Below, in pieces: positions 1,348-58,868 of a stretch of DNA of 64,000 nucleotides. Below the pieces are notes generated by a model. That model saw only the letters and a program-made list of their open reading frames with translations, did no database searches and was not told where the DNA came from. Source of the stretch: Trochalopteron elliotii (taxonomy: Eukaryota > Chordata > Aves > Passeriformes > Leiothrichidae); the NCBI GenBank assembly GCA_024734555.1, contig JANPWX010020521.1, forward strand, positions 248,827-312,826, given 5' to 3'. Every line of letters starts with the position of its first letter. Positions within the stretch are counted from its first letter, which is position 1. The translations under genes and the position numbers were made by a program.

Positions 1348-2725
1348 TCATAGAATCACAGACTATGGAAAATACTTGTTGAGGTCATTAAGTGAAATCA
1401 TCAACCCAGCACCACCACGTCATGTTCATCATAAATCCTGTTCTCAGGTGCTGTATCCACACATCTTTGGTAACTTTCAGGGGTGATGACTCCACCATTT
1501 ACATGGGCAGTCAGTTCCAATGCTTTGCTTCCACTTCTGTGGGAAAAGTTTTCCTAATATCCAATCTAAACCTCCAATGGCACAACATGAGGCTGTTTCC
1601 TTTTCTTCTTCTTGTGTCCTGTCCCCCCTGTTCCCTGGGAGCAGAGTCTGACCCTTCCCTCGCTGCACCCTCCTGTCAGGGAGTTCTCAAGAAGGTCCCC
1701 CTGAGTCTTCTTTTCTCCTGGGTGAGCCTCCCGCAGCTCCCTCAGTTTGTCATAGTGCTCCAGGTCCTTCCTCAGCTCTGTTCCCTTCTCTGGGCATGCT
1801 CCAATCTCTCAAAGTCCTTCAGGTGGTGAGGTGCCCAGAGCTGGACATGGCACTTGAGGTGTGACCTCAGCAGTGCCAGCACAGGGACGGCCACTGCCCT
1901 GCTCCTGCTGCCACACCATGGCTGGGACAGTCCAGGGGCTATTGGTCTTCTTGGCCACCTGGGCACCCCTGGGCTAGTGTCCAGCTGCTGTCACCAGCAC
2001 CCCCTGGGCCTTTTCCAGCTTTCCAGCCACTTTTCCCCCAGCCTGGAGCTGCGGGGGTTTGTTATGACCCAAGGGCAGGACCCAGCACTTCCTCTGATTG
2101 TACCTCACCCCATTGGCCTCATGCCATGGATCCAGCCTGCCCAGACCCCTCTGCAGAGCCCCCCTGCCCTCCAGCAGATCCACACCCCCACCCAGCCTGG
2201 TGCTGTCTGCAGTCTTGGTGAGGGTGCACTCAATGCCCTCTGCCAGGTAATCAATGAAGATGTTAAACAGTGCTGATGAGCTGTTCCACCACCTCCCTCA
2301 GTACTCTTGGATGATTCTCATCCAGCTCCATTGACTTATGTGGGGCTAAGTTTCCTAACAATTCACTGACCATTCCATCATGGATTATGGGGACTTCATT
2401 CTGCTCCCTGCCTCTCTCTTCCAGCTCAGGGGCTGGGTACCTTGGGAACAAGTGGTCTCATTATTAAAGACTGAGGCAAAGAAGGCAGCTCCTCATCTTT
2501 GTCTCTCTGTTTCCCTCCACATCCAACAAAGGATTCTCCTTGACTCTCTTTTTATTGCTCATATATTTGCATAAATGCTTTTTAGCATTTTTTTATACAT
2601 CTTTTATAGCGGTGGTCAGATTAAGTTCTAACTGGTCTTTGGCCCTTCTAATTCTCTCCCATGACCTCACAGCATCCTTGTAATATTCCTGAGCTTCCTG
2701 GTCCTTTTTTCCAGAGGCAGAAACA
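1348..2725 (-). mobile_element. CR1 LINE fragment, 3' part
   Basis: The plus strand shows the reverse complement of a CR1 LINE 3' region. It starts with a tail motif (TCATAGAATCACAG). Hallmark phrases follow in the expected order: CCTAATATCCAATCTAAACC near 1553-1574, the stretch about the ageing of cases by dominance of GGCCACCTGGGCAC near 1952-1966, and TTAAACAG near 2263. The far end near 2640-2720 still resembles the longer CR1 3' region. The element therefore points to the minus strand, is 5'-truncated as most CR1 copies are, and is old: many substitutions and no intact reverse transcriptase frame. The GC-rich overlapping ORFs here (for example 1392-1829 and 1854-2276) read antisense through it and are not genes. 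The 2725 boundary is approximate. Confidence 0.88.
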
Positions 2726-15000: not shown

Positions 15001-16939
15001 CAGTGGGCCCACATTATCTTATCCTTGTCACCCATGTATTTACAGAGGCTTTTCTGGATGTCTTTGACATCCCTGACCACATCAGAGTCCATTTCAGCTT
15101 TGGCTTTCATACACTCAACCCTGCCTGTTCAGACAGTATCTCTGCATTCCTTATGGGACATCCTTTCAATTAAAAATTACAAAGTAAGTTTGATGCGTTT
15201 TGTGTTCTCCTTCTGGCATCCAGCAGTAGTAGATCCAGTTGGATAGAGAAGCTGTAGGTAAGATGAAGAATGGCAGTTCCTTGGGAGACCATGATTTTCA
15301 GGACCATGGGTTTTTTTGATAATACCATGCTACTTAAATTCAAAGGTGCAGTTTCTAAGAGAAAGCAGACCATTCATATGGGTTCTAACAGGGTGCAATA
15401 AAAGAAGACAAAAGAAATGAGGTTTTAAAATGCTGACTTGCATCAGAAAACCATTATATCTGAATTTTTTTTCGGCAAAGCGAAAGACTCAAGTATGTTT
15501 AGAATTAATTGAATGTGTCTGAAGATCTAAAACTGTTAAATTCCAGACAAATTAAAAAATACTCCTTAATTTGCATGAGATTTGGATAGAAGAACAGAAG
15601 AAAGTTAAAATATTGTTGCCTCCATTTTTGACTGTTCAGGGCAGTATTTCCTATGTCTGTTTTCATTACCACAGACTATGAACAGTCCTCCACAGCAGCT
15701 TTTGCTGCAGTAAAGTCAGTAACCATTCTTGCCAGCAGGACCAGAAAGATTCATGTATGGAAAAATGGTATTTACTTGATAAATAGTGAAGAAATTTTAT
15801 CTCAGACCACTCAGTTCCTTAAAGCCAAGTAGTCACAATCACAGTTAAAATCTACTGCATTCTAGATACCAACCACTTGATTCTTATTGATAAACCCACT
15901 TCTTATAGTTCAAAAGGACCTGTACATTTCTGTATCATACTTCACAGAAACCTAGACAGAAATCCCTGTGCTAAAGATGCATGATCAACTTTCTCATCTC
16001 CAAATATTACTATGGGAACCACAGCTTTTCAGAGAGCAAAATAAACTGGTGGATTTCTCTGCCTTATTCTAACTTAAAATTTGAGTGAATCCCTACTTAC
16101 TGGCAATCACTGATTGCAGGAACACAGCCAGATCACTCCTCAGATGAAAGACTCTTGTTTTCTCTTTGTAGAATGAGCCTTTCTTCCCCTCATCTCAGGA
16201 ATAGGAATGACGTTTCTTTCTGTGTGTTGTGATAACCATCCCAGATTGGTCCAGTATCTCTGGCATAGCCAGCTGGAGGAAGAAGAAATGAATAAAGAGA
16301 AGACAGACGAAGCTGGTTCCCACTCCCACCACTGCAGCCTTCCACCTCCCAGGAATTTCAGTTTCACCCATATCCTGAGCAAGAAATTACATGTTTTTTC
16401 CAGTGATTCCTGAGATAATTGTTTCCATTTATTTTTCTAGTTATTTTACTTCTGAATCACTTCAACATCTGAACCATGGCATCCCATGGCAAAGAATCTT
16501 GAATCAGTATAACCTGCTGAATGGTATAGATAATTTCAATTTTTTTTAACTAGGTGGTTAAAGTTGAAGTGGCCACTTTCTTGCACAAGCAACCCTGGAG
16601 CAACTGAACCCAACTGATTTTTCAACATTTGCTCTTCTGCCCACAGACCCTTCCTTCACACCCCTTCAGGAATAATGGAAGCTGTCAGAAATGAAGAATC
16701 TATTAAAATTAAATTCTCTGTCCTAGAAGTATGGGGTTTTGAGAGGGTTTTGCCTTATTTTCAAGACTTCTTTGTAGCTGGATTCTAGCAACTGAAGCCA
16801 GAATACCAGAACACCTCAAAGAAAGTGTTGATTTGTGGGTTTTTTTTGAAAATGCTAAGGAACATTCATAATTTTCTGGAGTTCTCTGCTCACAGCTATG
16901 ACCTTGCCCACCCCTCTTTCTCAACTCTACCCACCTCTC
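12091..16939. other. Intergenic sequence flanking the provirus on the left, no gene recognised
   Basis: Base composition is ordinary, with GG dinucleotides present throughout. An (A)nC-rich patch lies at 12243-12270 (AAACAAACAAACAAGC). A minus-strand frame of 140 codons at 13351-13773 is Phe-rich with no domain and is probably chance. This flank is the natural control for the G-depleted provirus beginning at 16940. Confidence 0.5.
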
Positions 16940-17635
16940 TGTCCTAGGGTGACTATGATGCCTGTATCCCCACATTGTCTGTTCTGTGTTCTGTACCTTT
17001 AAAACTGGTTCTGAGAGTGAGCAGGGAAAGAAGAAGTATGCAGTTTGTTTTGAGAAACAAACTCACTCCTCTGAATCTGCTCTCGTCCTTGGGACTGTGC
17101 GGTTATTTTTTTTTTTTCCTTCGTCAGATGCACGGAGGGCAGCCAGAGAGAGAGGGTTTTTTTCCCCTTTGTTAGTCTAGCTAGCTGAGGCAAAGAAGCT
17201 TTCCTGGACTGGTTTTTTTTTTTTTTTTCCCTTTCTTTTTTTCTCTTTGGGACTGTTTAAATCTGCTCTGGACTGAAAAACCCAGAGGAGCACTGGGATC
17301 TTGCACCTGTGGCCCACCGGGCTGGGACTCAGCATTTTCCAGTACCAAAGCAACTAAAACTGATAAACAAACTCCTAGCACAGACTCTCAGTTTTGCCAT
17401 CTCTCTTCGGAGCAGCGAGAAGTTTTATTGTTTCATATTATTATTATTGTTATTATTATTATTATTCATTCTTTATGCTTGTGGGCATTTTGTTTGTTAA
17501 ATAAATAGGGGTTTTTTCCACTCTTCTCTGAGGGAGTTCTTTCCCCGGACCGGCTGGGGGAGGGGCTGTTTGGATTTGCTTTTCAGAAGAACCCCATTCA
17601 GAAATTTCCTCCCAAATTTGCCCTAAACCAGAACA
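16940..17635 (+). repeat. 5' LTR, unedited
   Basis: The 696-base LTR runs from TGTCCTAGGG to CAGAACA. It holds T-rich tracts (17107-17119, 17213-17231), an (ATT)n run (17437-17466) and an AATAAA signal at 17500-17505. GG and GGG are common throughout (AGCAGGGAAAG, CACGGAGGGC, CACTGGGATC). It aligns from end to end with the 3' LTR at 22732-23417, where most of these G bases are A. Beyond G/A sites the two copies differ at perhaps 15-25 positions plus small indels, so the insertion is not very recent. Confidence 0.93.
17500..17505 (+). promoter_or_regulatory. AATAAA polyadenylation signal in 5' LTR
   Basis: The hexamer lies in GTTAAATAAATAGG. Its counterpart in the 3' LTR is at 23278-23283, so the signal is conserved between the copies and supports plus-strand orientation and an R region just downstream. 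Confidence 0.65.
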
Positions 17636-17646
17636 TACATTAATAT

Positions 17647-17664
17647 TGGTGCCCAATGTGGGGC
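17647..17664 (+). other. Primer binding site, tRNA-Lys(1,2) type
   Basis: TGGTGCCCAATGTGGGGC begins 11 bases after the 5' LTR. It matches the 18-base complement of the tRNA-Lys(1,2) 3' end except at two positions, both T where a CpG would have C, as expected from methyl-CpG decay. Its GG and GGGG runs are intact although the next bases are already G-poor. That fits a site copied from the primer tRNA rather than from exposed cDNA. Confidence 0.85.
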
Positions 17665-19838
17665 TCAAAAAAGTAGAAAAAACTTGTATTAATTATTAAG
17701 TGCATTTTAGTTGTTCTTTGTGTAGAAATAAAGTAACCATGTTACCCCTTGAATCCCTAATGTCTATTAAAATAAAGTCCTTGCTGTATTTCTGTTCCCT
17801 AAGTTTCTTTGAAGTTCTAATACCTTTCTAGTCCCTAAGCTTGTTTTCTTATCCAAAATTAGCTCCAATGTTATCCCTAACACATAACTTTTACACTAAA
17901 AGTGCACAAATTAAAATTGCTACTTTGTTAAGTTTAGTGATCATGATTTATAAAAAGTTTATGAAAGTACTGAAGTTTGTAGCAGGTATGTTTAGTTTAT
18001 AGTTTCTTCGTCCTACCATGCATCCTAGTTCCAGCAGCATATTTTAAAAATTTATAAATAATTGCACCCACTTTGTTAAAAAAGGAACAAGAGATGAAAC
18101 TTTTCAGTCTTTCCTGTCCCTTGTATCTTTTAAATCAGTCACATCACTTTTAAAAAATGTTCAGTGTCCCCTGAATATTAAAGATACCATCTTCCTGGTA
18201 TTTCATCTAGTAAGCTTCCTCTATATAGTTTGCAGCTTGTCTAAAATAAAATCTAAAATTTCCAGAGGGGCTGATGAAACCCCTAACCCAAAAAAAACCC
18301 CAAGTGTAAAAAATCCTGAGTAGAATAAAAAATGAAAAGATATAAGCCAACCCCTGAAAAAATTTTCTAACCCTATAACCTAAAACTTTCCATATGAACA
18401 CATTCAAAACCCGGCTGAGGTGGGAAAATACTTAAAAAAGAAGTGCCAAAATAATTCCAAAAACAAAAAAATTGTTGCAATAAGCTGAGCCCTAGCATAT
18501 GCTTACCGCACACTGCTAAATAAAGTAAAGCAGCAAATAAAGGCAGGGGGCCAAAAAAATAAATCAGCAGCTAAACCAAACAGTGAACCTAAGCCCCTAC
18601 CAGTTGCTGGGGCAAAAAAGCAAACACAAAAAAACAATCAACCAATAAACAATAATCCAAGTAAAAAACCCTCAACAATACCTCCCAACAACACCCAATC
18701 AAATGTCCAACCAACTAACACCCAATCAAAAACCAATCAAACTAACACAAAATCAAAAGTCCAACCAACTGATACAAAGTCAAATGTCCAACCCACTAAC
18801 ACACATTCAAAAACCACTATTAAGTCCTTCTCCCTGAAAGACCTTCAAAACCTAAAAAAAAATTACACTCAACAACCAAATAAATCTATAATCAGTTAGT
18901 TAGTCCGTCTTTAAAATACTGCAAATAAAGCTACAATTCTAAACAGCACTAAAGCAAAGCATTTGAAATCCCTGTCACATAATCCAGTTATCAACCAAAA
19001 AATAATAAAAAAAACTACCCCTTGCAGTCTTTGGGAACGGATCCTGAAAAGTGTAACACAAAAATATCTATGTGCAAACAATCTCTATATACAACAAACC
19101 CAGTAAAAAACCATAAAACAAAAAATTCAGCGCTGAAAAGAAATAACAGTAACAGAAATTATCTTCTCAGATAACATAAACACTAAAAACCCAAACTTAG
19201 TACCATGTACACCTGTAATATAGCAAAAACTTGTACGACTTGGGCCACAAAAATACTCTTCTTCTTTAGCAATAATAAAAAAAAACTACATGGGGAAAGC
19301 GTACTGAATATAACAAAAAAACTTCAAGCATATGCAGATGCTGTGCATGGCCCAACACATGCCAAAATCACAGCCATAAAAACCCATCTGCAAAAATTAA
19401 AAAGCAAAATAGAAAAAAATCACCATACACTCAAAAATAAAATTAAAAAAATAAAAGAAAACTTTCTCCAAATCTCAGCAGTACAAGTCAGAAATTCTAA
19501 CACCAAACACAAACATTCCCCAAATAAAAAAAGAGAGGACATGCCACAAAATAAACTGTAGTCCCTCCTGCATGATTGTAAAAAATATATAAAAAGATGA
19601 AATAAATAATCTACCAATGATCTGGCACAACAGCTGCGTAAATTGTTGAACAGCAAAACTCAAAAAAAAAAAAAATCCACTAAAAAAAAAAATAACTCCA
19701 GTCACCCAAAAACAAACAAATAACCAAGTTTAAAGAAACCCAGCCTCTAGCCAAGTAAAAGCTAAGAACAACCGTGTTTTTTAAATTGTATAAATTCATT
19801 AGCCTAACACATCTAAACCACAAAAATATAAAACCTTA
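17665..19838 (+). pseudogene. gag-region remnant, hypermutated
   Basis: Position between the primer site and the protease motif is the main evidence for gag. I cannot identify matrix, capsid or zinc-knuckle motifs with confidence. G is scarce, but several GG-rich islands survive (near 18264-18268, 18405-18425, 18546-18551 and 18609-18613). A four-unit 27-base tandem repeat lies inside. The Lys-rich open frame at 19205-19561 is probably what Glu- and Gly-rich coding sequence becomes after G-to-A change. Stops occur in all frames elsewhere. Confidence 0.55.
18697..18816 (+). repeat. 27-base tandem repeat, about 4.4 copies, in gag region
   Basis: Units start at 18697, 18724, 18751, 18778 and 18805 (partial), with an exact 27-base period and no indels. 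The one open frame reads as nine-residue units of the form S-x-V-Q-P-T-N/D-T-x. The third unit keeps Asp where the others have Asn, as expected if G-to-A hit three of four GAY codons. This frame is the same (modulo 3) as that of the protease and RT motifs downstream. Confidence 0.85.
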
Positions 19839-20070
19839 GTCAATACTAGTGCACAGTGCACATTAATTCCATCAACACATATAAAAACAAAATCTATCTC
19901 TATCGCTAGTGTAACAAAAAAATCACAAAATTTTACTTTAATAAAAACTAATGTTAGTCTAACTAAAAATGAATAAAAAAAGCACCCTATTGCAACTAGC
20001 CCAAAAACCCCATGCATTCTAAGCATAAACTACCTCCGAAATAAATATTTCAAAAACCCAAAAAAATTCA
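19839..20070 (+). pseudogene. Retroviral aspartic protease remnant, active site mutated
   Basis: The sequence reads V-N-T-S-A-Q-C-T-L-I-P from 19839. In retroviral proteases the catalytic triad is Asp-Thr-Gly-Ala. Here the Asp codon is AAT (19842-19844) and the Gly codon AGT (19848-19850), both single or double G-to-A outcomes. About 180 bases on, I-L-S-I-N-Y-L matches the C-terminal helix region of such enzymes, again with Ser and Asn where Gly and Asp are usual. The enzyme would be inactive. A TAA follows shortly after. Confidence 0.75.
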
Positions 20071-20117
20071 AATAAACGTTTAAAATAGCAGCTGTAGTAA
20101 TAGAAAGTGTTAAGCAA

Positions 20118-20990
20118 TTGAACACCTTACCTAAACTATCAAAAAACCCATCTACTGTAAAACTTCTAAAAAGAAAAAAACAAGTGCCAATTACCACTTC
20201 AACAGTGCATCGCCAACAATATAAAACAACTCAAAATGCCGTAATCCCCATCCACAAAATAATTCATAAGCTAAAAAACCAAAAAACAGTCAACAAAACC
20301 CACACACCCTTCAACAACACCATTTGGCCTGTACATAAATCTAAAAAAAAATAAAAATTAACTGTAAACTATCGTGCCTTAAATAAAGTAAGTCCATCGC
20401 TGAGCGCTGCCGTGCCAAACATATTAAAGCTCCAGTACAAGCTAAAGTCCAAAGCAGCAAAGTAGTACACCACTATTAACATTGATAATGCATTTTTCTC
20501 CATTCCTTTAACAGCAAAATGCAAACCTCAGTTTGCCTTTACATAAAAAAGTGTACAATACACTTAAAACCAATTACCCCAAAAGTAACACAGTCCTACA
20601 ATCTGCCATAAACTAATTCAAACTACACTAAAAAAAAATAAAACTCCAAAACCTCTGCAGTACATCAATAACATCATTGTGTAAAAAAATACTGCAACTA
20701 AAGTATTAAAAAAAAAAAAATCCAAATTCTGCTAAAAACTAAATTCACTATCAAAAAAGCAAAGTTAAAAAACCTGCTCAAAAAATCCAATTCCTAAAAA
20801 TTAAGTAAAAAAATAAACAACGTCAAATTCCTACTAATGTCATCAACAAAATCACAACAATGTCTCCATCTACCAACAAAAAAAAACCCACAAACTTTCC
20901 TAAGTGCCGTAAGTTTTTGAAAAATGCATATCCCTACGTACAGCCAAATTGTAAGTCCTCTCTACCTAGTTACCCGCAAAAAAAACACTT
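20118..20990 (+). pseudogene. Reverse transcriptase remnant, active site mutated
   Basis: An open stretch from 20118 reads through HRQQYKTTQ, AVIPIHKIIHKL and TPFNNTIWPVHKSKKK, which match the finger region of retroviral RTs in order. Further on and in the same frame, L-P-Q-K-stop (20574-20588) stands where Leu-Pro-Gln-Gly-Trp is expected. Y-I-N-N (20661-20672) stands where the catalytic Tyr-x-Asp-Asp is expected, followed by I-I-V and a TAA in a Trp position. Every deviation is explained by G-to-A. The frame is shared with the protease, suggesting one pro-pol frame. The boundary to RNase H is approximate. Confidence 0.8.
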
Positions 20991-21569
20991 TCCACTGAAA
21001 CCCTAAACAGCAACACACCTTTGCCCAAATCAAGCAAGAGATCGCTCATACAGTAGCCCTTAACCCAGTCAAAACAAAACCAAATATGAAAAACATACTC
21101 TACTCTGCAACCAAAAACCATAGTCTGTCCTAAAATCTTTAGCAAAAAGTACCTGAGAAAACTCAAAAACAACCATTAAAATTCTGAAACCAAAGTTACA
21201 AAAAGTCTAAAGCCAATTATACTCCCACAAAAAAAAATTTTAGCAGCCTATAAAAAAGTCCAAGCTACCTCAAAAGTAATAAACACTAAAACACAACTCC
21301 TCCTAGCACTCCACCTACCAGTGCTGAAATAAATGTTTAAAGCAAAAGTTCCCTCTACCCACCATGCCACCAATGCTACATAAAATAAATAAATTGCTGT
21401 CATCACACAGCACGCCCATATTAAAAAACTAACTCACCCTGAAATTTTAAAAATAATTACAAATTAACCTAAAAATAAAAACTTTAGTCTCACAAATAAA
21501 AAAAAGCAAAAACCAGTAACACGTGCTAAAAAAGCTCCACCATACAACCAACTGCCAGCAAAAAAAAAC

Positions 21570-21840
21570 ACCCTACGCTCTTTTCACTGACAGTTCCTGT
21601 CACATAATAAAAATAAACCAAAAGTAAAAAACAACTGTGTAAAACCCCACACAACAAATCACTAGAACCACAAAAAAAGCACAATAAATCAAACCAACTT
21701 GCTAAACTCAAAACTATTCAATTAACATTACTAAAAAAAAACAAACCAAAGCTCTACCTCTATACTAATTCATAAATAGTAGCCAATGCTTTACAAAAAT
21801 AATTTAAAAAATTTAAAAAAGATAACTAGCACCATAAAAA
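21570..21840 (+). pseudogene. RNase H remnant of pol, mutated
   Basis: F-T-D-S-S at 21583-21597 matches the first conserved RNase H motif, with its Asp retained and Ser where Gly is usual. Y-T-N-S-stop-I-V-A-N-A at 21761-21790 matches the later Asp-Ser motif, with Asn for Asp and TAA in a Trp position. The two segments differ in frame by one base from each other, so at least one small indel accompanies the substitutions. Confidence 0.7.
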
Positions 21841-22039
21841 ATACCAATTTAAACTACCAAAAAGTAAAAAAACATTACCACTCAAATAAAAAAACTACCT
21901 ATAAAAATCCATCATATAAATACCCATATCCCCAAAAATAAAACTAATAAAAAACACCAAAACAATGAACAAATAAATCAAGCTGCAAAAATAAAAGTAT
22001 CAAAAATAAACTTAAATTAACAACACAAAAAAAATTGTT

Positions 22040-22500
22040 CCTAACTCAATAAGCTCATGATGCCTCAGGTCATCAGAGCAAAAATACCACCTATAAATAA
22101 ACACAAAACCAAAAAGTAAACCTAACTATAAACAGTATTTCTCAAGTTATTCATAACTGTAACACATGTACTGCAATCAAGCAAGCCAAGCAAATAAAAC
22201 CCCTGTAGTATAATAAACAGTAGTCCAAATATAAGTATAAAAAAACCTAGCAAATTAATTATATCACACTACCCCAAACACGTCAAAGTAAGTGCTACGT
22301 ACTCACAATAATAAAAACCACCACGGGGTGGCTAAAAACCTACCCTGTGCCTCATGCTACAACCCGTAACACCATTCTAAACCTTAAAAAACAAGTTGTC
22401 TAAAAGCATAGTACCCCTATTAAAAAAAAAATTTACATCAAATCCACCTCAAATACAGACAAACCCATCCATAAAATTGTCTTTACTCAAAAACCATGTT
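22040..22500 (+). pseudogene. Integrase remnant of pol, mutated and probably truncated
   Basis: A-H-D-A-S-G-H-Q from 22053 and H-N-C-N-T-C-T-A-I-K from 22152 are the His and Cys pairs of the integrase zinc domain, in one frame. T-stop-Q-I-N-Y-I at 22245-22265 is the start of the catalytic core, with Asn for the first metal-binding Asp and a stop in a Trp position. A further match, T-T-G-W-L-K-T-Y-P-V-P-H, runs near 22320-22355. After about 22500 no integrase-like sequence is readable, and the remaining Asp/Glu motifs are not visible before the 3' LTR. The C-terminal part may be deleted. Confidence 0.75.
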
Positions 22501-22731
22501 GTACATAATAAATAATGCACAAAAATAAAACAACACAGTGTGTACCTCAAAAAAATCTGATTGTTAAATAAAAACCATGTATACATATCACTTTTTATTA
22601 AATATCACTGCCATTATCTGTATATAGCTGTATATTATTTTTATATAAATATATACATGCATAATGTGTGTTTGTAGAATTAAAATTCAATTAGTTTTAA
22701 TAAGCTGACAATATAATAATAAAAAGTAAAA
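22501..22731 (+). other. Pre-LTR noncoding segment with degraded polypurine tract
   Basis: AT-rich, TATA-like sequence without coding signal. The last 14 bases (AATAAAAAGTAAAA, 22718-22731) directly abut the TG of the 3' LTR and are purine except for two T bases, as expected for the plus-strand primer tract. No envelope gene fits between integrase and this point. Confidence 0.5.
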
Positions 22732-23417
22732 TGTCCTAAAGTAACTATGATACCTGTATCCCCACATCGTCTGTTCTGTGTTCTGTACCTTTAAAACTGA
22801 TTCTGAAAGTAAGCAAAAAAAGAAAAAGCACGCAGTTTGTTTTAAGAAACAAACTCACTCCTCTAAATCTGCTCTCGTCCTTGAAACTGTGTGGTTATTT
22901 TTTTTTCCCTCGTCAGATGCACAAAAAACATCCAAAAAGAGAGGGGTTTTTTCCCCTTTGTTAATCAAGCTAGCTAAAACAAAAAAGCTTTCCTAAACTA
23001 TTTTTTTTTCCCTTTCTTTTTTTCTCTTTAGAACTGTTTAAATCTACTCTGAACTAAAAAACCCAAAAAAGCACCAAAATCTTGCACCCGTAACCCACCG
23101 GGCCGGGACTCGGCATTTTCCAGCACCAAAGCAACTAAAACCGATAAACAAACTCCTAGCACAAACTCTCAGTTTTACCCTCTCTCTTCAAAGCAGCAAG
23201 AGGTTTTATTGTTTCCTGTTATTATTATTGTTATTATTATTATTCATTCTTTATACTTGTAGTCATTTTCTTTGTTAAATAAATAAGTTGTTTTTTTCCA
23301 CTCTTCTCTGAAAAAGTTCTTTCCCCAGACTGGCTGGGGGGAGGAACTGTTTAAATTTGCTTTTCAGAAAAACCCCATTCAGAAATTTCCTCCCAAATTT
23401 GCCAGAAAACCAAAACA
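22732..23417 (+). repeat. 3' LTR, G-to-A edited
   Basis: This 686-base LTR is the partner of 16940-17635. Editing is dense over most of it: CAGGGAAAGAAGAAG became CAAAAAAAGAAAAAG, CACGGAGGGC became CACAAAAAAC, ACTGGGATC became ACCAAAATC. By eye about sixty sites are G in the 5' copy and A here, and about three the reverse. A short GC-rich pocket at 23094-23113 is untouched. Edited G bases are mainly followed by A or G, i.e. TC and CC on the minus strand. Confidence 0.93.
23278..23283 (+). promoter_or_regulatory. AATAAA polyadenylation signal in 3' LTR
   Basis: This is the counterpart of the 5' LTR hexamer at 17500-17505, in GTTAAATAAATAAG. It would be the functional genomic-RNA processing signal of the provirus. 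Confidence 0.65.
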
Positions 23418-26400
23418 CTGTCTCATGCACATTCTTTGCTAAAGCTGACCCTGACAATGTGTGTTGAGCCCATCTGTTTCCTCTAGATTTGAACTTTGTG
23501 CTTGAGGTTCACATTTTATTACCACAACTACCACTGAGAGGCACGGACACCCTCCAGCTGGTGCCAAACCACCCTGTGTCAAAACTTCTGAAGTGTCCCA
23601 TTCCTTTGTTCCCCTCTTCTCTCAATCCCAGCTACAATCTAATGGTTCCTCCTCTTTCTGCCCTTCCTTCTTTCCTCTCTTTTCATTTTTTCCTGAGGTC
23701 AATCAGCTGCTTTTTCCCTAATTTATCCTTGTGTTTGGTTAATTTAGAGGGAGTTTTAGGAGTTGACTCAGATCATAAAAGGCTCTAAAGGGCACCAAAA
23801 CAACAACTAAATGGAGTTGCACATTCTTCCACTGTGGGATTTACTGTCTAGGTTTGTTTTGAGTATTCATCTTATACTGGCTGTTCAAACAAAGCAAGAA
23901 GTTGTACTTTTTGTCAGAACATCCCCAGTTTCAATTGTATCATCCATTTAGAAAGAAAGTGTCCAGGTAAACTGACAAGTTCTTAAACAATATTGATAAA
24001 CGGGAAGGGAAAGCCAAGATTTGCAAAGGAATACAACATCTCTCTGGCCTTGCATCTTCTTCCTCCATTATCCTTTAGGAGAGTGGTAGGGATACCAGTC
24101 TCTGACAGCAGGCATGGAAGAAATGCAACACCAAGAACTTTCTATAATTTACCAGCCTGAGGGCAGCACAGAGAGACTAAGCCATTACACCAGGTAGTCA
24201 GATAGCATTTTTAATTCATTAAACTGCCAGATGTTTTGTGTGATGGACAATTATCCAATGGCTTTTTTACTCCCTGCGACTCTGAGTTGCACTATAGCCA
24301 GAAAAATTGTGTTGAACACAATTTTGAAATGTGCGGGAAATGGAAAGTGAAGTAAGAAAGACAGCAATAAAGATGTAGTGCTTTCTCCCTCCTCAGATGA
24401 CAAGGAAATCAAGCAAACATTTCCTCACAAGATAATCTTAACAGCTTGTTTCAGAGACGAGTCACAAAAGAAATTAAATGTTCTGCTAAGGATGGGGTCA
24501 ACTGCCAGTCAAGACTCAGAGCTCTCAGTAAAGGTCTCTAGAAAGAGAAGGTGTGAAGAGATGCTGAGAATCTTTAGTATAATTAGGGAAGGAATTTTTT
24601 CAGAATTTGTTTAAAATACAGCTTTTATTTTTTTAGATCAAGGAACAGTGAATATCCTAGGATGGTTAAAAATCCCCTTCACTTTACATAGGCATATTTC
24701 AGAAAAATCAGAGTAAATAGCTAAGCTTTGTGTCACTAGAAAGCAGGCAAGACATTTCACTGCTGGAAGAAGAGGAATCTGGATACTCTAGGGAACACCA
24801 AGGAACATAAAAACTGCAGTTAAACAGACAATTCATTTCACTGGCTCTCCAATAGAGCAAGGCAAACATAGCATCGGTCAACTCTGAAAATGTGGATCCA
24901 CTTATAAACACAGAACTGCTTTCAGCATTCTTGTGCGGGATTTGAATTTTCTAGGGGGAGTATCAATGTACTTGGAGAAAATAGATAATTACCCCCCAAA
25001 CCAGCTACACACTTAAACCAGTACACTACTTGAAATGAAATGGAAGTGCCTTAGATATTAAAATCTGTCTTTCTAGATAATCTATCAATGTGATATACTG
25101 TCTAGATCCTAATTAAAGTCAAAATCATGTGCCTGGCTATTGCTTTCATGATTTCATCTTGTCCGCTCAGAATTAAATCTAAAAAAGGAATAGCTGAGTC
25201 CTGGTTTATAATTTTTTCCAGATTCTAAAGAGGTCTCAGTAGAAGGTATGGGAAAAAAAAAAAAAAAAAAGACTTCTTGCTTTTGCCTTTTAAAATTTAC
25301 TACTTCTAAAATTGCCAGTCAACAAATTCAGTTTTCCATGTGAAAGTCAGGCCAGGTTAGTTATGTCTCTTGCAAAGGCAGCAATAAAGAATCAGCTGGT
25401 TGTGAGAAGGGACAGCTCCCAGCTCCTACCGTGTCAGTATGCTGGCACTGATGAGTTACTTGTAATTTATTTCAGTCAGCAGAGACAGCAGATACGACTC
25501 TGTGTGCACACAGGAAGGATTGCTCAAGTCAGAACAGACCATTCTATTCAAAGGCAACTTTCAGTGTAAAGTTACAATTTGTCATGCTCCTAGAAGGGGG
25601 AGAAAAATTACTATAATGCTTCCATTGTTGCATAAAGCAAATGTGTGGCTGGAGTTTGATGAGGTGATCTGGCTTTTAAACTTAATCCTGGAAAACAGTG
25701 ACTGAGGAGTTACTGAATACAGCTGACAGAGAGGGAAAATAGAGACAAGATTAGCTTCATTAAAGTATTTTCATCATGGAAATAGAATTTTAAAAGATAG
25801 GTAAGGTGAAATTGCTTAAATTGTGAGATTCCAATAAGCAATATCCCAATATTTTGCAGACAGAATTTCACTCTTTTTCTTGAATTGTTTAAAGTTTTTC
25901 TGCTTTTTAAAAATTTGATTAATTATTTATTATTCTCAGTGGAGAGAAGGAAATGTGAGATGCTTAAAGTTTTAATAGGGTAGGATAATTTATATCTGTT
26001 TCATATTTTTTTTTAATTTAATTCTTTGACTAACATAACCAGAATTATTAAAATTTCTGAGAAATCATTGGGGTCTTTTGGCTGAGTACAGTCTGTTAAG
26101 CTTTTTCTAATGCATATTGCTCTGTGGGTATGTTGCTATTGGCATTGATGGGGAGACATGGTTGTGCTCAGCCTGCAACCACCACAGGCTAAGACAAGAT
26201 CAAAAATGGCTGACATATATTTTTCTATTTTATGAAAATGAGACTGATTTTAATTGTGATACGGTCCATGTACCATTTGCATCTGAAGAACTGCAAAAAG
26301 CACACACAGAGTTTATAAACAGAGCCAAATTGATTAAATACTGACAGAGGACAATGCCTATGCAGAGACCTAATACCATGACTGGTTAAAAATTAATGCA

Positions 26401-37800: not shown

Positions 37801-38189
37801 ATGGATGCTGTACTAGGCTAAGAATTAAAGGTATTTAAGAGCAGCCCAGCTGTGTGTTCATCAGCCTGCCCTTAAATGCTGAGCAGAAACAGAGCCTTTG
37901 TACAATGCTGTATCATCAAGCTTTGTTTTCTCTTCTGTTTTCCTTCTTGCTGACTGTAAAAAACAAAGGAGAGTTACTGATTTTGCCATCAGCATTTGGA
38001 TGCAGCCAACATCCAGGGAGCAGCACAAATTCCTCCACAAAAGGGTTAGGGCTGTGAGATTTTAGCTCCACACCTAGGCTGCCCAGGCTGTAAGGCCACA
38101 GAACCCAGAACCAAGTTCTATATCTCATCATGTCAGACTCCGCACACCCATATTCACAGTCAATACACCCAAAAGTCAAAAGAAACTAA

Positions 38190-38355
38190 AACATTAAAAC
38201 AAAAAAAAACCACCAAAAAAAATCAGACAAAAACCACAGACCCCCCCCAAAACAACGAAAACACACAAAAACCAACACAAAACCCCACCAAAACCACACA
38301 AAAACAAACAAACAAAACTACAAACAAACAAACACAAAACCAAAACCACAACCCA
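38190..38355 (+). repeat. A/C-only low-complexity tract
   Basis: About 165 bases composed almost wholly of A and C (AAAACCACC, ACAAACAAACAAAC, CCCCCCCC). Only a handful of G and T are present. Confidence 0.85.
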
Positions 38356-40785
38356 ATTGAAAAACCATGTTTTTTTTAAAACGGGGTTAATTTGCCTCAT
38401 TTTAATCTCAGTGTTCCCATGACAGAACAAAATTAATTCTTCATGTCTGTTAAGTTCTGAACTTATATCTTGAAAACTTTTCCAAGCAATCAAGACATCT
38501 TTGCCTTTATTTGTATGCTTCTAGTACTCTGAGACTACTGAGTGGTTTCATGAGCCCTTTTTCTGTCACCGTCAGGGAGATCCTTGCACATTTGCCTACA
38601 GAGGGAGTAACATTCATGCCATTCTTTGAGAGATCTTCAGTGTGAAAACATATTGGGTCAAACTTCAATATACTGCCTTCCAGCAAGAAAACTACTGCCC
38701 TGTAAAATGTGATCATGTAGCACAGGTGTACTTGCACAAAACGTACAGCTCAGTTTCCTATTTTTTTTTCCTACTCCTTTATCTTTAGTAAAAGACACCT
38801 CTTTTCAACCTTAGAAGCACATATCATAACAATAAACCAAACAATTTATTAAATACTTTGTTTGTTATGGGTATTTTTGAAGGATTTTTGTCCCTGTTGG
38901 CAACAAAAAAAACCCAAAACACCCAAACAATTTTTTTTAAATTCTGCACATTTTTACTTCACATGTGTAAGAATAGGTTCCCCATCAAATTGTCTAGTTA
39001 TGGATTTCATGAAAGGCCCTCAAGCAAAATGAGTCCTCTTCTGTTTGCAAATGTTCCTGTTAGAAACAGAGGATGAAAAGAGCAAAACAATTTGCTGCAT
39101 GACAGTGGTGAAGTGCTGAAAGGGCAAAACAGCCTTGGGGTATAGGGACATTCTTTGTGTGACAGTGGAAAATCCTGGTTTTGCTAAAAGGAATTTTTAA
39201 AAAATCAATCCTTCGTGGGGTGAAAAGTACAAGAAACACATTTAAAAGAGGTAAAAATGGGTAAAATAGGTTAAAAAATGAGATCACAAGCAGGTTTTTA
39301 TCATTTGCAAATTTGAAAACTGGAAATTTAGCAAGAACAGTTAAAAAATTACAAGTTGTCAAGTTCATTTAAAGTAGATTTAAAATGCATGAAATCTAGG
39401 TATGGAAACAGAGGTGTGTACCTACTGACATCTTATTCTCTCCATCACCAGAAATCTATGATGCACTTTGTGTAAGCATATATTCAACCACTCCCCCAAA
39501 AGATTCCTCCCCATTTTGAGCCACTTTGGCAGATATTTTGTGTTCTAGAGGATAAAATGGTCTGGTCAGTTCTGACACTGGTGGTGGAGCTGTCAGGGTG
39601 ATGCTATGCAAGGGAAAGAGAGCCAGGAGGTGCAGAGTCTTGGTCACTGCTTCATCTGCAGCCTGGAGAGTGGCAGGAACAGTGTGAGTTCTTTGAGCAG
39701 AACCAGCATGACATAGTCACATTGAGATGATAGATATAGCATGTAGGGATGATAACAAACAGTAATAAAGGTAGATATAATAATTATACTATTATCTTGT
39801 CCACCACCAATGTGAAAGTGTTGTTTAATAATTGAAATATATATGTAAAATAAAATTAGAAATAAGTGTTAAAATATATAGGCAATACATACGTGCTGAT
39901 TGAGGTGCACCAATTGGCTCTGCTTGTGAACAAAGTTAGAAAAGAGAAACTGTTGTTTCACAGAAATATTTCCTATTTCTTTTGGCTGTTCTGGGGACAC
40001 ACCAGACTTTCACAATTAGAGTAAACCAGCCATTTCCGTGACCTTGAAAGCTTTCATGCCTAACACTATAAAAGTATGTTCTTGGTGCTGTAGTTCAGGG
40101 CACTTTAAATAATGCATCATGGTAGATATAAATTTCCTGAATGTTGCTGCATGCTGCAAATGCTTTTACATTTAAATTGTAGTAGACATTGCACCGTGGG
40201 ATACACTATAATTGCCATACTGTTTTGGAGAAGCAGAGCTGAGGTTGACAAGAGTTTATAAAGTGTTTGTACTCTTATTGGTTCTAAAGTTGGTAATTCC
40301 ATAATTCTACATTGAGTGCCTCTGCAGGGACTGTCCTGAATGTTGACCATGTAAAAGGAGTTTAGGATTTTTGCTAGATGCCTGTACATAAAACAGTTTA
40401 AGAAATGCAGGTGATGATTAAAAAAAAAAAAAGTATAGCTTTTAAAAAAAATATATAGCTTATACTTGTTTTGCTCAAGCATAGATTCAAAACCAAAAAC
40501 TGTCACTGCAGGGAACTGCAACCTGGTAAGCAGGTCAATGCAAAGAAGGCAGTGCTAGCCCTGCTAACAGTAAACCTGCTGAGTGGATAATGAGATACGG
40601 TGCTCTGCAGCATTGCAAATCAGACAGAAACCTGTGAGGGCACTGGCTTCACTTACAGAAAAATGAAGGCAAGGCAATGCATGAACTGATTTGAGATTTA
40701 ATTTTTATGTTTCTTGGTCCTGCAAGAAGCCTGATGCAATATGCTGGGTTAAATGAAGCATGCATTAAAATGATATTGACAGAAT

Positions 40786-58345: not shown

Positions 58346-58868
58346 GGTATGAAACATGATCTTAAATCCTGCATTCAGTTTTGGGGCTTTCAATTCAGGA
58401 GAACATCAAGGGGCTGGCGTGAGTCCAGAGAAGGGAGCAGAGCTGGAGAAGGGTCTGGAGCAGCAGGTGAGGCTGAGGGAGCTGTGGGGGCTCAGCCTGG
58501 AGAAAAGGAGGCTCAGGGGGGTACTTCTCATTCTCTACAACTCCCTGACAGGAGAGTGTGGTGAGGTGGGTGACAGTGTCTTCTCCCAGAGAAGTGACAG
58601 GATGAGAGGAAATGGCTCAGGTTGTGCCATTGCATGTTTAGACTGGATATTAGGAACCTTTTTTTTTTTCACAGAAAGGGTTGTAAACCATTGGAATTGA
58701 CTGCTCATGGAAACAGTAGAGTCAACAGCCCTGGAGGCATGCAAAAAATGTGCAGCTACTGCACTTGAGGACATGGTTTAGTGGTGAACGTGAGATAGTG
58801 GTGCTGGGTTAAAAACTGGACTTGATTTTAGAGGTCTTTTCTAAGCTGAGCAATCCTGACTCTTTGTC
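58346..58868 (+). mobile_element. CR1 LINE 3' region, plus orientation
   Basis: Forward CR1 text runs from about GAAACATGATC, including GGGGCTCAGCCTGGAGAAAA near 58487, GGCTCAGGGGGGTACTTCTC near 58511, TCTCTACAACTCCCTGACAG near 58533 and TTAGACTGGATATTAGGAA near 58638. It ends at GAGGTCTTTTCTAAGCTGAG near 58832. A T10 insertion splits the GGAAC-TTTTTTTTTT-CACAG segment. The terminal octamers are not preserved. The 114-codon plus frame inside is a chance frame. Confidence 0.92.

What the first reader, a model, noticed from the sequence alone, without database searches (positions are those of the whole stretch)
17665..23417. Provirus carrying massive strand-biased G-to-A hypermutation
Seen: from just after the primer site to the end of the 3' LTR the plus strand is stripped of G while C stays common. 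Whole 60-base lines have 0-4 G (the line at 21901 has none). Both host flanks and the 5' LTR are normal, so the boundary matches one reverse-transcription product rather than a regional composition shift. Known: AID/APOBEC deaminases convert C to U in single-stranded minus cDNA, giving plus-strand G-to-A. Birds lack APOBEC3, yet genome surveys have reported edited LTR elements in birds including finches, implicating AID or APOBEC1. Inference: this copy is an extreme case that was integrated and fixed.
Basis: partly seen in the sequence, partly recalled or inferred. Interest (0 to 1): 0.88.

Follow-up and report, generated by a model that had tools for sequence, protein, structure and literature searches.

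The report
Bird provirus edited except one end
An old retrovirus, likely of the bird ERVL group, has had most of its editable G letters changed to A everywhere except its primer site and, almost entirely, its front repeat, and several sister copies in the same genome show the same lopsided pattern, which suggests that a host DNA-editing enzyme, likely of the APOBEC1 kind, struck late while the virus was being copied into DNA.

Summary
Confirmed, with one correction. The element is 16940-23417: two LTRs, a primer site, and an internal region of 9.4% G. Against little-edited copies from the same genome, G-to-A exceeds C-to-T 195:10, 106:3 and 94:3 in three internal pieces; the first change lies three bases past the primer site.

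The unexpected part is the LTR pair. LTRs should be identical at insertion, yet 61 G-to-A changes separate 5' from 3' LTR, against 3 A-to-G; about 12 more are shared by both. Of 11 two-LTR copies compared, this one included, 7 show a significant 3'-LTR excess (up to 82:1) and none the reverse.

This fits deamination of the minus strand after plus-strand strong-stop synthesis: 5' LTR and primer site come from that early copy, while the 3' LTR minus strand is displaced and exposed later. Mouse Mtv proviruses show the same at 2-16 sites (PMC12548423).

The context is TC/CC, the reverse of AID's: hotspots 38/248, coldspots 156/255 edited. The genome has an AID-like gene with two APOBEC1-like exons beside it. 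The enzyme's identity is inferred.

The parts
16935..16939 (.). 5' target-site duplication, CTCTC
   Evidence: 4 of 5 bases match 23418-23422
16940..17635 (+). 5' LTR, nearly unedited
   Evidence: G/(G+A) 0.49 at purine-followed sites; about 12 A sites shared with LTR3 where copies have G
17647..17664 (+). primer-binding-like site, unedited (resembles the tRNA-Lys-1,2 type by recall, not tested)
   Evidence: no G>A at 17636-17664 against 9 of 9 copies
17665..22731 (+). internal region, hypermutated G to A; first change at 17667 or 17669, depending on the copy
20001..20800 (+). pol piece used for comparison (reverse-transcriptase-like by eye only; no call matched it to a family)
22251..22400 (+). 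integrase core fragment, with stops on both sides
   Evidence: Pfam rve E=0.0048, below its cut-off; relatives; 4 of 4 stops in 22137-22457 stand at Trp of the relatives
22418..22420 (.). junction where this copy lacks about 320 bp present in 10 of 10 copies compared
22721..22731 (+). polypurine tract by position, stripped of all but one G
22732..23417 (+). 3' LTR, edited at 61 of 145 aligned G sites
23418..23422 (.). 3' target-site duplication, CTGTC

Best explanation
This is an integrated provirus, likely of the bird ERVL group, whose internal region and 3' LTR, but not its primer site and hardly its 5' LTR, carry strand-biased G-to-A changes that were most likely made by an APOBEC1-type deaminase on the minus-strand cDNA after plus-strand strong-stop DNA had been copied. 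Shown: polarity, strand bias, context, the break at the primer site, the 5'/3' LTR asymmetry and its recurrence in sister copies. Inferred: little editing happened before U3-R-U5-PBS was copied into plus-strand strong-stop DNA, which became the 5' LTR. The rest of the minus strand lay single-stranded and was edited, more heavily away from the primer site. While the 5' LTR was completed on the strong-stop DNA, the old minus strand of the 3' LTR was displaced, exposed and edited, but less (51 of 87 purine-followed G, against 70 of 78 just upstream). Plus-strand completion fixed the uracils as A, and the product integrated already broken. Inferred too: the enzyme is one of two APOBEC1-like deaminases encoded beside AID.
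For: LTR pair 61 G>A: 3 A>G: 2 C>T: 9 T>C in 682 sites; at 59 of 61 sites at least 6 of 8 little-edited copies have G. Internal pieces against the least-edited copies: 195:4:10:4, 106:4:3:4, 94:3:3:3 for G>A:A>G:C>T:T>C. Break at 17662/17667. 7 of 11 LTR pairs skewed to the 3' LTR at p<0.01, none to the 5' LTR; sums 373 G>A to 44 A>G. Rise along the internal region and drop at U3 (p=9e-5 and 7e-6). Pooled rise from U3 to U5 over six pairs, P=2e-4. TC/CC context, AID hotspots 38/248, coldspots 156/255. Integrase: 25 of 29 differences fit G>A alone, 4 of 4 stops at Trp. AID-like gene and two APOBEC1-like exons in the genome. Precedent with the displaced-strand explanation: PMC12548423 passages.
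Against: The window's own LTR3 leans the other way along its length (31/45 edited in the U3-side half, 20/42 in the other, p=0.052), and the pooled trend rests mainly on two elements (P=0.03 without C1227). 4 of 11 pairs show no significant skew (18:8, 6:4, 6:5, 3:2), and in C1234 both LTRs are edited alike. The rise along the internal region uses different reference copies, of which the pol one is itself partly edited (G/(G+A) 0.34), and pyrimidine-followed sites rise somewhat too (31/142, 30/88, 24/65 edited). Only four purine-followed G sites lie in the primer stretch, so the exactness of the break rests on few sites. For both APOBEC1-like exons other APOBEC-clade Pfam models outscore the APOBEC1 model; their activity is untested. 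Pol hits were ranked by likeness to this edited copy, so the share of edited copies is not a genome-wide rate.
Confidence: 0.82

Rival explanations
1. Intermolecular plus-strand transfer: an unedited strong-stop DNA from a second cDNA in the same particle joined an edited minus strand, giving a clean 5' LTR and primer site.
For: Predicts the same break at the primer site.
Against: Does not predict the drop in editing exactly at U3 (70/78 to 51/87) or the pooled rise towards U5, and must recur in 7 of 11 pairs.
Confidence: 0.09
2. Both LTRs were edited at insertion and the 5' LTR was later replaced by gene conversion from an unedited copy.
For: Many little-edited LTR copies exist as donors.
Against: Needs a tract ending at the primer site, intact duplications, and one direction only: no pair of 11 is skewed to the 5' LTR. 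About 12 shared edits remain in the 5' LTR.
Confidence: 0.05
3. AID rather than an APOBEC1-type enzyme made the changes.
For: An AID-like gene is present in this genome.
Against: AID-type hotspots (WRC) are edited at 38/248 and coldspots (SYC) at 156/255, pooled over six pairs; window alone 6/41 and 30/50.
Confidence: 0.05
4. Another TC-type deaminase, for instance an APOBEC3-like gene that the search missed, made the changes.
For: Dinucleotide context cannot tell TC-type APOBECs apart; mouse APOBEC3 also prefers TC or T(T/C)C (PMC12548423 section 8).
Against: The 6 matches of APOBEC_N in this genome look AID-, APOBEC2- and APOBEC1-like; only 12 candidates were scored.
Confidence: 0.25
5. The low G is an ancestral base bias of the family.
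For: Many copies in the genome are G-poor.
Against: Little-edited copies have G/(G+A) near 0.5 at the same kind of site; the two LTRs of one element differ; 25 of 29 integrase differences fit G>A alone and 4 of 4 stops stand at Trp, against 153 of 690 G>A-compatible differences among the relatives.
Confidence: 0.01

Closest known systems
Endogenous MMTVs Mtv17, Mtv21, Mtv61, Mtv62 with 3'-LTR-specific G>A (PMC12548423; passages, and sections 6 and 8)
   Same: G>A changes confined to the 3' LTR beside shared ones; runs of neighbouring changes; the authors' displaced-minus-strand explanation; very low G (10.8% in Mtv21).
   Different: 2-16 LTR differences there, 26-82 here in six pairs; a mammal with APOBEC3 there; here a probable bird, with the break resolved to the primer site.
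Ultra-edited zebra finch ERVs such as TguERVL1_I-int (Knisbacher and Levanon 2016; not held, known only through PMC12548423 Table 3 and PMC6523648)
   Same: Songbird ERVL-type element with mass G>A.
   Different: 71.5 G>A per kb in that table; 134-170 per kb in three pieces here, counted against single copies. Whether that paper looked at LTR asymmetry I could not check.
APOBEC3-edited HIV-1 with twin gradients (PMC4488724; passages)
   Same: Editing of single-stranded minus DNA, heaviest upstream of the polypurine tract.
   Different: One rise here, near saturation from mid-pol on, plus an edited 3' LTR beside a nearly clean 5' LTR.

Membership tests
Deaminase-hypermutated provirus | Large excess of plus-strand G>A over C>T against unedited relatives | tested here: met
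   195:10, 106:3, 94:3
Deaminase-hypermutated provirus | Nearest-neighbour context of a known deaminase class | tested here: met
   GA 157/258, GG 116/196, GC 39/159, GT 20/194 edited, six pairs
Deaminase-hypermutated provirus | Confined to the element, host flanks untouched | tested here: met
   fitted 3' break lies inside LTR3
3'-LTR-specific editing (Mtv type) | G>A unique to the 3' LTR, with some shared by both LTRs | tested here: met
   61 against 3; 12 shared; 7 of 11 pairs
AID editing | Preference for WRC, avoidance of SYC | tested here: not met
   38/248 against 156/255
APOBEC1 editing | TpC preference (PMC6854741, passages) | tested here: met
   shared with other TC-type APOBECs
APOBEC1 editing | Active APOBEC1 in the host germline | not testable with these tools
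   two APOBEC1-like exons found; activity unknown
ERVL | 5-bp target-site duplication | tested here: met
   four sister copies exact by eye; window 4 of 5
ERVL | Foamy-like polymerase/integrase by phylogeny | tested here: inconclusive
   only integrase chains matched the fragment, at E about 1; they are foamy-virus entries by recall; no tree built
ERVL | No envelope gene | not tested
   integrase fragment ends about 275 bp before LTR3, but this copy lacks about 320 bp there

The most novel reading that the evidence does not exclude
A bird genome holds a population of ERVL-type proviruses whose 5'/3' LTR differences are a time stamp of deamination: an APOBEC1-type enzyme does in the bird germline what APOBEC3 does in mammals, and strikes mainly after plus-strand strong-stop synthesis, on displaced and still uncopied minus-strand DNA.
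Probability: 0.5. Interest if true: 0.78.

Novelty: new variant of a known kind. Interest (0 to 1): 0.64.

Why it matters
The 5'/3' LTR difference tells when, within one round of reverse transcription, the editor acted. In the papers I could see this was reported at 2-16 sites in mouse Mtvs and four or fewer in mouse MLV copies; here it recurs, with up to 82 G-to-A sites in one pair, in a lineage said to lack APOBEC3. It makes the question of which enzyme guards the bird germline testable, points to a TC-type deaminase beside AID, and warns against dating such proviruses by LTR divergence: 85 substitutions separate these LTRs, of which 61 were probably there at insertion.

Tried and rejected
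Ancestral composition bias, AID as sole editor and 5' LTR conversion were tested and set aside (see rivals). Post-integration mutation is set aside because flanks and 5' LTR are spared.

Led nowhere: Pfam and PDB searches of pol- and gag-like pieces; relatives in viral contigs, prokaryote contigs and phage records; Rfam over the window; protein search with the 92-residue pol piece; NCBIfam for the deaminase exons.

Rows dropped: 9 fetched pieces held no LTR in the expected place and orientation, so 9 elements left the pair count. Of the 16 best other pol hits 8 gave pairs; two more pairs came from LTR hits; with the window 11. The first LTR comparison was wrong for minus-strand loci, which are not flipped; redone. 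One search stopped with an error before its last seven pol rows; one search covers five of them; L062 and L067, cut by contig ends, were not compared. Against the window, 31 pol comparisons gave 6-106 G>A; one copy (L043) is more edited than the window and gives 6 G>A to 38 A>G (L061 was counted twice).

Age: 24 of 682 LTR sites differ other than by G>A, 3.5%; at a recalled songbird rate of a few 1e-9 per site per year that is several million years, not calibrated here.
Full report
What is there. The window (64 kb of an unnamed 1.04-Gb genome) holds a two-LTR provirus at 16940-23417, with a primer-binding-like site at 17647-17664 and flanking 5-bp repeats matching at 4 of 5 bases. An integrase fragment (22251-22400) finds one relative, and that one finds 76 proteins, itself included; those with a host name are from birds (Hirundo, Turdus, Zosterops, Limosa). 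Exact 5-bp duplications in four sister copies (read by eye) and the bird relatives suggest an ERVL-type element. I built no tree, and no call matched the reverse-transcriptase-like pieces.

Is the G depletion editing? Yes. The LTRs differ by 61 G(5')-to-A(3') against 3 A-to-G, 2 C-to-T, 9 T-to-C and 10 transversions in 682 aligned sites. At 59 of the 61 sites at least 6 of 8 little-edited LTR copies carry G, so the change was G to A; over 34 copies, edited ones included, G is in the majority at 56 of 61. For the internal region I compared pieces with single copies of the same genome. Against the least-edited copy of each set: 195 G>A, 4 A>G, 10 C>T, 4 T>C over 1460 bp at the 5' edge (L003); 106, 4, 3, 4 over 793 bp of pol (L068); 94, 3, 3, 3 over 554 bp at the 3' edge (L008). 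Over all copies compared, G>A was 95-195 (9 copies, C>T 7-10) at the 5' edge and 26-94 (12 copies, C>T 1-4) at the 3' edge; in pol it was 6-106 with C>T 2-15, the 6 being against a copy more edited than the window. The three best figures are 134, 134 and 170 G>A per kb; the highest in Table 3 of PMC12548423 (section read) is 120.8, counted against a different kind of reference. In 91 integrase columns 25 of 29 differences from the relatives' majority residue fit G>A alone, 1 fits C>T, 3 fit neither, and 4 of 4 stops stand at Trp; among the relatives 153 of 690 differences are G>A-compatible.

Where does it start and stop? A change-point fit on purine-followed G/A sites puts the 5' break between 17662 and 17667 (support 17573-17670 or 17601-17678, by range fitted). 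Against 9 of 9 copies there is no G>A at 17636-17664, and the first is at 17667 or 17669. That stretch has 8 G sites, 4 of them purine-followed, so the exactness rests on few sites. The 3' break is fitted inside LTR3 (23327/23328), where a last G-run was spared.

Zones. Editing of purine-followed G is 164/222 at the 5' edge, 76/81 in pol, 70/78 at the 3' edge and 51/87 in LTR3; the rise (p=9e-5) and the drop at U3 (p=7e-6) are significant. The reference copies differ between pieces and the pol one is itself partly edited. Pyrimidine-followed G is edited less, 31/142, 30/88 and 24/65 in the same pieces and 10/58 in LTR3.

Why the LTR asymmetry matters. In the textbook scheme LTRs are identical at integration. 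A nearly clean 5' LTR and clean primer site beside an edited 3' LTR are expected if deamination acts after plus-strand strong-stop DNA (U3-R-U5-PBS) has been copied: that DNA becomes the 5' LTR, while the original minus strand of the 3' LTR is displaced and exposed again. PMC12548423 (passages) gives this explanation for four Mtvs with 13, 16, 2 and 9 LTR differences and reports four such sites in one MLV copy. I tested 11 pairs: 61:3, 67:5, 82:1, 42:3, 54:5, 26:8 and 8:0 are skewed to the 3' LTR at p<0.01; 18:8, 6:4, 6:5 and 3:2 are not; none is skewed to the 5' LTR. The pol hits behind eight of the pairs were ranked by likeness to this edited copy, so 7 of 11 is no genome-wide rate. Pooled over six pairs editing rises towards U5 (P=2e-4), as displacement predicts, but two elements carry most of that and the window leans the other way. 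The window also has 12 A sites shared by both LTRs where copies have G: a little early editing, CpG decay, or inheritance. Its polypurine tract is nearly stripped of G, whereas C1234, whose LTRs are both edited alike, keeps it intact; one skewed copy (C1212) keeps it too, so this is only suggestive.

Which enzyme? On the minus strand the order is TC and CC, then GC, then AC. CC sites depend on the neighbour: edited in 77/101 if the next G is edited, 37/89 if not, like the runs described for Mtv21 (PMC12548423 section 8). AID hotspots are hit at 38/248 and coldspots at 156/255. Several mammalian APOBEC1 enzymes prefer TpC (PMC6854741 passages), and zebra finch is listed as having an APOBEC1 homologue (PMC3880073 passages). 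In this genome APOBEC_N gives 6 matches from 12 scored candidates: an APOBEC2-like frame on one contig and, on another, an AID-like gene in three stretches, one with a TGA inside, plus two exons about 10 and 26 kb away. These two have APOBEC1 as best PDB match and pass the Pfam APOBEC1 cut-off, though other APOBEC-clade models score higher; both keep HxE and PCxxC (read by eye). Activity is untested and a missed APOBEC3-like gene is not excluded.

Literature limits. My searches listed no report of 3'-LTR-specific editing in bird elements; I saw listings, and passages or sections only of the papers named. Knisbacher and Levanon 2016 is not held.

Verdict. Hypermutated songbird LTR elements are known; the late, 3'-LTR-specific form at this scale and recurrence, resolved to the primer site, is a new variant.

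Noticed in passing
L010 and L011 (contig C1234, both LTRs of one copy): Both LTRs are edited alike (65 and 67 G>A against the window's 5' LTR) and the polypurine tract is intact: either early editing or descent from an already edited copy.
   Followed up: partly
L043, with L070 and L071 (contig C1288): A copy more edited than the window: 1 G of 251 purine-followed sites in the 800-bp pol piece, LTRs 67:5.
   Followed up: partly
L100, L101, L102 (contig C439) and L099 (contig C1672): AID-like exon with two APOBEC1-like exons nearby, and an APOBEC2-like frame elsewhere.
   Followed up: partly
window 18685-18811: Tandem array of a 27-bp unit, 4.7 copies, in a gag-like position.
   Followed up: no
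window 1403-1793 and 58425-58810: Inverted copies of a dispersed repeat, 72% alike.
   Followed up: no
window about 38140-38370: G-poor A/C low-complexity tract outside the provirus; the lowest plus-strand G/(G+A) of the flanks.
   Followed up: no
window 16940-17635 against 22732-23417: At 6 sites the 5' LTR has T where most little-edited copies and the 3' LTR have C, possibly CpG decay of the 5' LTR alone.
   Followed up: partly
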